Positions 4,376 through 6,495 of a stretch of 64,000 bases of DNA are shown piece by piece. The DNA comes from an uncultured Methanobrevibacter sp. GTDB taxonomy: Archaea > Methanobacteriota > Methanobacteria > Methanobacteriales > Methanobacteriaceae. The stretch's first letter is position 1. Each line of letters starts with the position of its first letter. The stretch spans positions 1-64,000 of the forward strand of contig NZ_CACXTS010000008.1 in assembly GCF_902770715.1 (NCBI RefSeq). Reading direction: 5' to 3'. Made by a program: the position numbers and the translations under genes. The notes under the pieces are model-generated. The model worked only from the letters and a program-made list of their open reading frames with translations. It did not search any database and was not told the DNA's origin.

Positions 4376-4402
4376 TTAATTAAAAAAAAATAAGAAAAAA
4401 GG
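4376..4402 (-). terminator. T-rich terminator of the FrhB-like gene
   Basis: Ten bases after the stop of the FrhB-like gene the minus strand runs into long T tracts (about 6 and 9 T within 20 bases), the usual archaeal intrinsic termination signal. Confidence 0.5.
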
Positions 4403-4412
4403 TTTTAAGCCA

Positions 4413-5486
4413 TCATTTGTCTAAAGCTTTAAAACCAATCGGTGTAGTACTGTATTTTGTTCCGGCAGCCATAATCACATCTTGGACTGATGAGGTGAGC
4501 TTTGATTCGGGTCTCCAAGGTGCATCTTTATCCTGACCGACAATTGACACTTCGTCAACGATTTGATTTTCAAGCAGATATACCAAAATAGCTGAAACTA
4601 CACCACCATCCTGACCTATTATGGAATTTGCCTTTACTGAATAGATTTCAAGATAGTTTCCAAGAGGTTTTTCGTCAATGTCTTCCGGATAAATCTTATC
4701 GCTTACAAATGTTCTTGGACAGGCAAAGTAGCATGCGTGACAGTCCTCATCACAATTTCCCTTGATTACCGGTTTTCTGCGATTGATATGAATTATATCT
4801 TTTGGACAGACATATTCACAGGCACCGCATAAAACACAGGATCCAACACTTATCACATCATTCTGCAGGTTTTCAAACTGGCAAAGACTTGACTCTTCTA
4901 TGAATTCCTCTTCAGTTATTGCCCTTTTTGATAAGACCGGCCTTGCAACAGCTTCCCTTTTTTTATAGTTTTTTGTGTTTCTTGAAATTTTCTGATTGGC
5001 TATTCTTTCCAGCAGATTCAATCCATTATCGGAAATGTTTTCTGTTGTAATGTAACCCTTATCAATTGCATCTGCAATTATTTCCTGGCCTTTTCTTGAC
5101 CTGACAATCACTGTTGAGTAACCTTGCGGAGAACCGACTGACCCCACTGAAATATCGGATACATCTGATGTATAATCAGTACATATGTGGCAGTTTTTAC
5201 GGGTGAACGGTTCTGTTTCTGCAATTGGGATTGAAAATACATTACCATCAATCAGATAGGCAACGAATCTCCCCTTATCTATTCTGAATTCCTTTACCTC
5301 ATACAATTCTATACCTTGTTGCTTTAAATATTTCTCAAGATATGAATATGAAAAGTTTTCCATGCAGAACAGACCTATTTTCACATCAATAGGGGATCCA
5401 CCAGTTTGTTCACTATACCTGTTAATTTTTGTAGCCGCCAATATCTGACAGGGAGTTCCTACCATTGCGGTTTTGATTTCGCTCAC
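4413..5486 (-). CDS. F420-hydrogenase beta-like Fe-S flavoprotein with permuted domain order
   Basis: 357 residues from a GTG start with an excellent ribosome site (GAGGTG, five bases upstream). It begins directly with the FrhB/FdhB C-terminal domain (AMVGTPCQILAA, residues 8-19; GLFCMENF). A ferredoxin-type cluster region follows (CVLCGACEYVCP, about 216-227; then CDEDCHACYFACP). It ends with what is normally the N-terminal domain (GQDGGVVSAILVYLLE, AAGTKYSTTP). FrhB homologues oxidise or reduce F420 using FAD and Fe-S clusters; this one probably passes electrons between F420 and an unknown partner. The divergent flavodoxin-ferredoxin gene fits a redox role. Confidence 0.85.
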   Translation of the reverse strand: MSEIKTAMVGTPCQILAATKINRYSEQTGGSPIDVKIGLFCMENFSYSYLEKYLKQQGIELYEVKEFRIDKGRFVAYLIDGNVFSIPIAETEPFTRKNCHICTDYTSDVSDISVGSVGSPQGYSTVIVRSRKGQEIIADAIDKGYITTENISDNGLNLLERIANQKISRNTKNYKKREAVARPVLSKRAITEEEFIEESSLCQFENLQNDVISVGSCVLCGACEYVCPKDIIHINRRKPVIKGNCDEDCHACYFACPRTFVSDKIYPEDIDEKPLGNYLEIYSVKANSIIGQDGGVVSAILVYLLENQIVDEVSIVGQDKDAPWRPESKLTSSVQDVIMAAGTKYSTTPIGFKALDK

Positions 5487-5546
5487 TTTTTCACCTCATT
5501 CAATAGACCGGAAGACTACTTCCACCAAACATTATTTTTGGCATTA

Positions 5547-5736: not shown

Positions 5737-6495
5737 ATGTCTAAAGTGATAAGTATATTTTTTAGCCCATCAGGGACAACAAAAAAGGTAATCAGCAAAA
5801 TAGCAGGCAACTTCAAACAGGAAAAGGAATCTTGCGATTTGCTGCATTTTAATGATAACAAATCATTCGACGAAAAGGATATCGCCATTGTTGGAATGCC
5901 AGTATTTGCAGGAAGAATTCCGAAAACTGCACGCGAAAGATTATCAAAATTAACCGGAAACAATACAAAGACAATAGCTGTTGTGAATTATGGAAATGCA
6001 CATGTGACAGATGCATTGCTTGAATTGGTTGAATTGCTTAAAGAAAATAACTTTGATGTCATTGCAGCCGCATCCACCATCAGCCACCATTCAATATTTG
6101 ACGGTGTTGCAGTTGGAAGGCCCGACCAAGATGATGTTGAAAAAATTAACGGTTTTGCACAAAAATGTATTGAAAAAATAGAATCCGGCGAGTCATTGCA
6201 ATCAGAAATTCCAGGTAACAAGCCATATGTGGACTACAAACAGCTTCCATTCACAATAAGCTGTGATGAAAGCGTGTGTGCATTCTGCTATGATTGCGTT
6301 TCAATTTGTCCTGAAAAGGCTATTCCTGATGATGACCCCGTCGATACTGACCTTGATTTATGCTCAAGATGTACCGCATGTATCCATATCTGTGAGGAAA
6401 ATGCTAGAAGCTTTACTGGAGACGCATTTGAAACTAAAAAACCTGCATTTGAAGAAGCAAACAGCGAAAGAAAAGAGCCCGAGTTCTATCTATAA
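5737..6495 (+). CDS. Flavodoxin-ferredoxin fusion (EFR1 family)
   Basis: 252 residues. The N-terminus is flavodoxin-like, with an FMN phosphate loop FFSPSGTTKKV (residues 7-17) and VGMPVFAGRIP. The C-terminus carries two 4Fe-4S motifs (CAFCYDCVSICP and CSRCTACIHICE). Such proteins shuttle electrons in the cytoplasm; the partner is not known. Ribosome site GGTGAG precedes the ATG. It is divergent from the FrhB-like gene, and the shared 250-base spacer suggests related roles. Its last six bases overlap the end of the convergent repeat protein gene. Confidence 0.88.
   Translation: MSKVISIFFSPSGTTKKVISKIAGNFKQEKESCDLLHFNDNKSFDEKDIAIVGMPVFAGRIPKTARERLSKLTGNNTKTIAVVNYGNAHVTDALLELVELLKENNFDVIAAASTISHHSIFDGVAVGRPDQDDVEKINGFAQKCIEKIESGESLQSEIPGNKPYVDYKQLPFTISCDESVCAFCYDCVSICPEKAIPDDDPVDTDLDLCSRCTACIHICEENARSFTGDAFETKKPAFEEANSERKEPEFYL

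What the first reader, a model, noticed from the sequence alone, without database searches (positions are those of the whole stretch)
4413..5486. Precise circular permutation of an FrhB-like protein
Usual order is FrhB N-domain, then GTPCQ C-domain. Here the protein starts at the GTPCQ domain, runs through a ferredoxin-like region and ends with the N-domain. Its last residues (AAGTKYSTTPIGFKALDK) would join directly to its first (MSEIKTAMVGTPCQ) in a normal homologue. The GTG start has a perfect ribosome site and the stop a terminator, so this is not a truncated ORF. It looks like a true permutation, probably via tandem duplication.
Basis: partly seen in the sequence, partly recalled or inferred. 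Interest (0 to 1): 0.65.

Follow-up and report, generated by a model that had tools for sequence, protein, structure and literature searches.

The report
Permuted F420 subunit of glutamate synthase
The gene really does carry its two enzyme halves in swapped order, but so do almost all of its relatives in this order of methane-making archaea, where the protein is thought to feed electrons to glutamate synthase, and the swap was already noted in a 2013 paper; the small new point is that in this lineage the gene has moved out of its usual operon.

Summary
ORF 5486->4413 (minus strand, 357 aa) reads FrhB C-domain, two [4Fe-4S] ferredoxin sites, FrhB N-domain. The cut lies in the 7-10 residue linker that joins N and C in normal homologues, and all cluster ligands are kept. 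It is not a misassembly: the same order occurs in 127 of 152 genomes of the phylum, closed genomes included, and in three other archaeal lineages.

The protein is the orthologue of MTH193 / MTBMA_c06440, the proposed F420-oxidising subunit of F420-dependent glutamate synthase (FGltS(II)). In about 70 sampled loci the permuted gene lies between the GXGXG and glutamate synthase genes. In the window's clade it has left that operon: the other three genes sit on another contig, with 2 nt where it would be. Presence of gene and core co-varies fully in genomes at least 90% complete (33 both, 2 neither, 0 discordant).

The permutation is already in print: the Figure 9 legend of the 2013 eLife Frh paper notes it for the M. 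marburgensis protein. So it is real but known. Not found described in a limited literature search: the relocation, and permuted homologues beside 2-oxoacid:ferredoxin oxidoreductase or mtd genes in other archaea.

The parts
4413..5486 (-). Permuted FrhB-like gene, 357 aa: proposed F420H2-oxidising subunit of F420-dependent glutamate synthase (MTH193 orthologue), detached from its operon
4935..5474 (-). FrhB C-domain (aa 5-184), with cluster ligands C13 (GTPC), C41, C99, C102
   Evidence: Pfam PF04432; profile boundaries; Cys conserved in 57-58 of 58 permuted homologues
4701..4874 (-). Two [4Fe-4S] ferredoxin sites (aa 205-262): C217, C220, C223, C227 and C245, C249, C252, C256
4422..4661 (-). 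FrhB N-domain (aa 276-355), with the GQDGG and GTKYS FAD-region motifs
   Evidence: Pfam PF04422; profile boundaries
5491..5497 (-). Shine-Dalgarno sequence GAGGTGA before the GTG start
   Evidence: read in the sequence
4382..4401 (-). T-rich tract after the stop codon (probable archaeal terminator)
   Evidence: read in the sequence; no hairpin terminator in the scan

Best explanation
The protein is the F420H2-oxidising electron-input subunit of a four-subunit F420-dependent glutamate synthase (FGltS(II), MTH193 type). Inferred action: F420H2 passes a hydride to FAD held between the two FrhB halves; electrons run through the [4Fe-4S] cluster of the FrhB C-domain and the two ferredoxin clusters to the ferredoxin sites and FMN of the glutamate synthase core, where 2-oxoglutarate and the ammonia released from glutamine by the GATase subunit become glutamate. 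The permuted order is an old, inherited feature of this subfamily: an ancestral Fd-N-C (or N-C-Fd) chain was re-cut in the N-C linker, probably by duplication and trimming, with the fold kept. In the window's clade the gene later moved from between the GXGXG and glutamate synthase genes to a separate site next to an M42 peptidase gene. Shown: the order, its conservation, the orthology, the intact ligands, the relocation and the co-occurrence with the core genes. Inferred: the enzymatic role and the route of origin.
For: Order C-Fd-N. Same order in 127 of 152 phylum genomes and in other archaea. Operon GATase_7 - GXGXG - permuted gene - Glu_synthase in about 70 of 121 sampled loci (some genomes sampled twice), often with glutamine synthetase before it. 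The window's genome has the core operon on contig C25 with the permuted gene absent between GXGXG and Glu_synthase (2 nt apart), likewise G011, G021, G030. Co-occurrence of permuted gene and core across 60 same-genus genomes: 49 both, 7 neither, 4 discordant, Fisher p 3e-6; at 90% completeness or more, 33 both, 2 neither, 0 discordant, p 0.0017 (not corrected for relatedness). All four subunits show the same kinship pattern, window nearer to the probable M. thermautotrophicus genome than to an operon-type member of its own genus. All Methanobacteriales copies in the tree form one clade, 100/100. AlphaFold2 model pLDDT 90.7, pTM 0.91; best PDB matches FrhB. Published: MTH193 as subunit of F420-dependent glutamate synthase (PMC3087415) and the permutation of its M. 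marburgensis counterpart (PMC3591093).
Against: No purified enzyme is known; PMC3087415 says the assignment 'remains to be proven'. In this clade the gene is no longer beside the core genes, so co-expression is not assured by an operon. Its conserved divergent neighbour is a flavodoxin/ferredoxin protein (5737-6495), which could be another partner. Two same-genus genomes under 90% complete have the gene without a full core (G052; G022 has a core fragment) and one has the core without the gene (G049); a fourth apparent mismatch, G005, is a contig edge.
Confidence: 0.88

Rival explanations
1. After leaving the operon the protein took a new role, for example as an F420H2:flavodoxin or ferredoxin oxidoreductase serving the divergently encoded flavodoxin/ferredoxin protein at 5737-6495.
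For: The divergent neighbour is conserved in about 20 loci of this clade and is a flavodoxin-like protein with two 4Fe-4S sites.
Against: Members of the same clade lack that neighbour (L039, L041, L044 and the termite-gut species), whereas the glutamate synthase core is present wherever the permuted gene is in genomes at least 90% complete. Identities of the four subunits remain in step.
Confidence: 0.08
2. Assembly error or chimeric contig that joined two halves in the wrong order.
For: The genome is a draft of 86 contigs.
Against: Same order in over 100 other assemblies, including single-contig genomes.
Confidence: 0.005
3. Convergent fusion: a free C-domain and a free Fd-N protein were joined, so that it is not a circular permutation by descent of a single chain.
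For: No tandem-duplicated intermediate was found.
Against: Both junctions have the lengths expected from cutting and rejoining one chain; Fd and N keep the order and spacing of Fd-N-C relatives such as 8riu_B; no free C-domain or Fd-N genes were met apart from pieces at contig edges and one broken copy.
Confidence: 0.12

Closest known systems
F420-dependent glutamate synthase subunit MTH193 / MTBMA_c06440 (ADL58239), FGltS(II)-alpha
   Same: Same C-Fd-N order, about the same length (352 aa in the probable M. thermautotrophicus copy, L128), same ligands, 50% identity, one clade in the tree; permutation stated in PMC3591093.
   Different: In the window's clade the gene lies outside the glutamate synthase operon.
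FrhB, beta subunit of F420-reducing hydrogenase
   Same: Same two domains and four cluster cysteines; best structure matches.
   Different: FrhB is N-C without the ferredoxin sites; the own genome's FrhB-like gene on contig C4 is a separate gene of 285 aa.
FpoF/FqoF and the N-half of Fsr
   Same: Same three parts.
   Different: Order is Fd-N-C (PMC3448663; seen here in L121, L133, L177).
FdhB, beta subunit of F420-dependent formate dehydrogenase
   Same: Same parts.
   Different: Iron-sulphur part at the C-terminus, N-C-Fd according to PMC3448663; weaker match to solved FdhB chains.

Membership tests
FrhB/FdhB/FpoF superfamily | Both FrhB_FdhB_N and FrhB_FdhB_C domains above curated cut-off | tested here: met
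   PF04432 163 bits (cut-off 23.3), PF04422 66 bits (cut-off 22)
FrhB/FdhB/FpoF superfamily | Four cysteines of the FrhB cluster (Cys 104, 134, 192, 195 of M. marburgensis FrhB) | tested here: met
   C13, C41, C99, C102, conserved in 57-58 of 58 permuted homologues
FGltS(II) F420 subunit (MTH193 type) | Permuted order, C-domain first, N-domain last | tested here: met
   published for the M. marburgensis protein
FGltS(II) F420 subunit (MTH193 type) | Falls in one clade with the operonic copies | tested here: met
   12 Methanobacteriales rows, support 100/100
FGltS(II) F420 subunit (MTH193 type) | Encoded in the GATase - GXGXG - Glu_synthase operon (usual, not strictly defining) | tested here: not met
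   Core operon intact on another contig of the same genome, permuted gene absent from it. Read as relocation, since orthology and co-occurrence hold.
FGltS(II) F420 subunit (MTH193 type) | Glutamate synthase core present in the same genome | tested here: met
   G000:C25, 445.6 bits to PF01645, with GATase and GXGXG genes
FGltS(II) F420 subunit (MTH193 type) | F420H2-dependent glutamate synthase activity | not testable with these tools
   No biochemical proof found for any member
FpoF / Fsr-N | Ferredoxin part first, order Fd-N-C | tested here: not met
FdhB | N-C followed by iron-sulphur part | tested here: not met

The most novel reading that the evidence does not exclude
The permuted FrhB module is one ancient, broadly used electron-input part with a single origin: beside glutamate synthase it serves 2-oxoacid:ferredoxin oxidoreductases (first gene of the operon, or fused to the TPP subunit) and possibly Mtd in other archaea, making F420-coupled enzymes not yet described.
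Probability: 0.45. Interest if true: 0.5.

Novelty: already known. Interest (0 to 1): 0.3.

Why it matters
The family holds its three parts in all three cyclic orders: Fd-N-C (FpoF, Fsr), N-C-Fd (FdhB, by the literature) and C-Fd-N (here), a tidy natural example of circular permutation without loss of the fold. The practical gain is annotation: genes labelled 'F420 hydrogenase beta subunit' in Methanobrevibacter with this order are probably the fourth glutamate synthase subunit, tying nitrogen assimilation to F420H2, and in one clade the subunit must be looked for outside the operon. The wider distribution suggests F420-coupled 2-oxoacid oxidoreductases that can be tested.

Tried and rejected
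Misassembly: rejected by independent genomes. Partial tandem duplication visible in longer homologues: the extra C-terminal parts of L114/L117 (about 90 aa, no Pfam match) and L115 (TPP_enzyme_C) are not leftover FrhB domains. Adjacent second FrhB copy as a relic of duplication in L118 and L119: the neighbouring ORFs have no FrhB domain. Faster change of the F420 subunit because of relocation: rejected, operonic copies are as divergent relative to their core genes. Literature searches for 'circular permutation' with FrhB terms found no paper using that phrase for this protein; the statement was found by reading the FrhB structure paper. The phylum of G085 gave no permuted copy, which alone proves little. 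Foldseek aligns in sequence order, so it matched only one half and could not score the permuted whole.

Full report
WHAT IS THERE. The ORF runs 5486->4413 on the minus strand, 357 aa, GTG start. A GAGGTGA Shine-Dalgarno sequence lies just before the start, and a T-rich tract follows the TGA stop; the hairpin-terminator scan found none. Pfam gives FrhB_FdhB_C at 5-153, ferredoxin models at about 212-259 and FrhB_FdhB_N at 291-350, all in one chain. Solved relatives (8riu_B, FrhB, Fsr) align in two pieces in swapped order.

HOW PRECISE. Profiles for the three parts were built from 14 permuted proteins and run on permuted and ordinary relatives. Ordinary chains have 7-10 residues between N and C (one outlier of 29). 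The window protein has 2 residues after N and 4 before C, so the cut is in that linker. C and Fd are joined by 20 residues, in the range of the ordinary N-terminal lead plus C-terminal tail. The four cysteines of the FrhB cluster, the eight ferredoxin cysteines and the GTKY motif are kept. The AlphaFold2 model is confident (pLDDT 90.7, pTM 0.91) and its best PDB matches are FrhB chains, over one half only as expected of a sequence-ordered aligner.

HOW WIDESPREAD. Same order in relatives at 75-94% identity, in all sampled Methanobacteriales groups at 43-70%, and in distant archaea at 33-39%. In the phylum of the window, 127 of 152 genomes have a match at E <= 1e-75 to the permuted profile, a few of them contig-edge pieces. 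In the small phylum of G073, 19 of 23 genomes carry one to three full-length permuted copies beside ordinary ones. In the phylum of G078 only 1 of 247 does, and none of 28 in the phylum of G085; G094 stands alone in its phylum and has one. A tree of the N and C domains, blind to their order, puts all permuted rows on one side of one branch, weakly (68/53); the Methanobacteriales rows are one clade (100/100).

WHAT IT DOES. Clustering the neighbours of 121 permuted genes (some genomes sampled twice) shows that in about 70 the gene lies between a GXGXG-domain gene and a Glu_synthase gene, after a GATase gene, often with glutamine synthetase before. This is the predicted F420-dependent glutamate synthase; MTH193 is its F420 subunit (PMC3087415; FGltS(II) in PMC3448663). 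G070, whose size of 1,751,377 bases is that of M. thermautotrophicus delta H by my own knowledge, carries the gene in this operon (L128). In the window's clade (the 57-100% identity group, termite-gut species included) the gene is elsewhere. The window's genome has the core operon on contig C25, GXGXG and Glu_synthase genes 2 nt apart; G011, G021 and G030 look the same with 4-19 nt. Since the outgroups (G070, G061, G072) have the gene in the operon, the detached state is derived, by parsimony. Presence of permuted gene and core co-varies: 49 both, 7 neither, 4 discordant in 60 same-genus genomes; none discordant at 90% completeness or above. These counts are not corrected for relatedness. Discordant G005 is a contig-edge cut of an operonic copy (L150).

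WHAT IS KNOWN. [quoted passage not shown] The permutation is therefore published, although not found there under the term circular permutation. No description was found, in three literature searches, of the detached locus or of the permuted copies outside glutamate synthase; the library is open-access only, so this is weak.

OTHER PERMUTED COPIES. In L171, L116 and L184 the permuted gene stands beside genes for 2-oxoacid:ferredoxin oxidoreductase subunits; in L115 it is fused to a TPP-binding domain of such an enzyme; in L114, L117 and L172 it carries a 90-residue extension and is directly followed by mtd or its apparent homologue (Pfam MTD shown for L114; L117 clusters with it). These suggest other F420-coupled enzymes and are the most interesting lead. 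PMC9012536 reports FrhB paralogues beside pyruvate oxidoreductase genes in ANME-1, so the pairing as such has precedent; whether those are permuted was not tested one by one.

VERDICT. Real, precise, conserved, and already reported for the orthologue. The gene is ordinary for its order of archaea; the relocation and the wider permuted subfamily are modest additions.

Noticed in passing
L171:2339-6001, L116:2939-6054, L184:1-3114, L115:2537-4168: Permuted FrhB-like genes sit with 2-oxoacid:ferredoxin oxidoreductase subunit genes in distant archaea; in L115 the permuted protein is fused to a TPP_enzyme_C domain. Suggests an F420-coupled 2-oxoacid oxidoreductase.
   Followed up: partly
L114:745-3027, L117:2704-4982, L172:2210-4494: A permuted FrhB-like protein with a C-terminal extension of about 90 aa, no Pfam match, lies directly before an mtd gene (F420-dependent methylene-H4MPT dehydrogenase).
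   Followed up: partly
window 5737-6495 (+): Divergent neighbour: flavodoxin-like domain plus two 4Fe-4S sites, 252 aa, best NCBIfam model EFR1 below its cut-off (61 of 75 bits); conserved beside the permuted gene in about 20 loci.
   Followed up: partly
L146:5766-8862: Core of F420-dependent glutamate synthase of the window's genome (GATase, GXGXG, Glu_synthase) on another contig, without its F420 subunit.
   Followed up: yes
L113:1916-2804: Candidatus Methanobinarius endosymbioticus: the permuted gene is split into two ORFs (C-domain; Fd plus part of N), possibly a pseudogene in an endosymbiont.
   Followed up: no
G010, G056 (99% complete, same genus): Both the permuted gene and the FGltS-type glutamate synthase core are missing, suggesting loss of this glutamate route in some species; another Glu_synthase paralogue remains.
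   Followed up: no
L170:1672-2784: A third, divergent permuted FrhB-like gene, followed by an ORF with a CLSCH haem-like motif.
   Followed up: no
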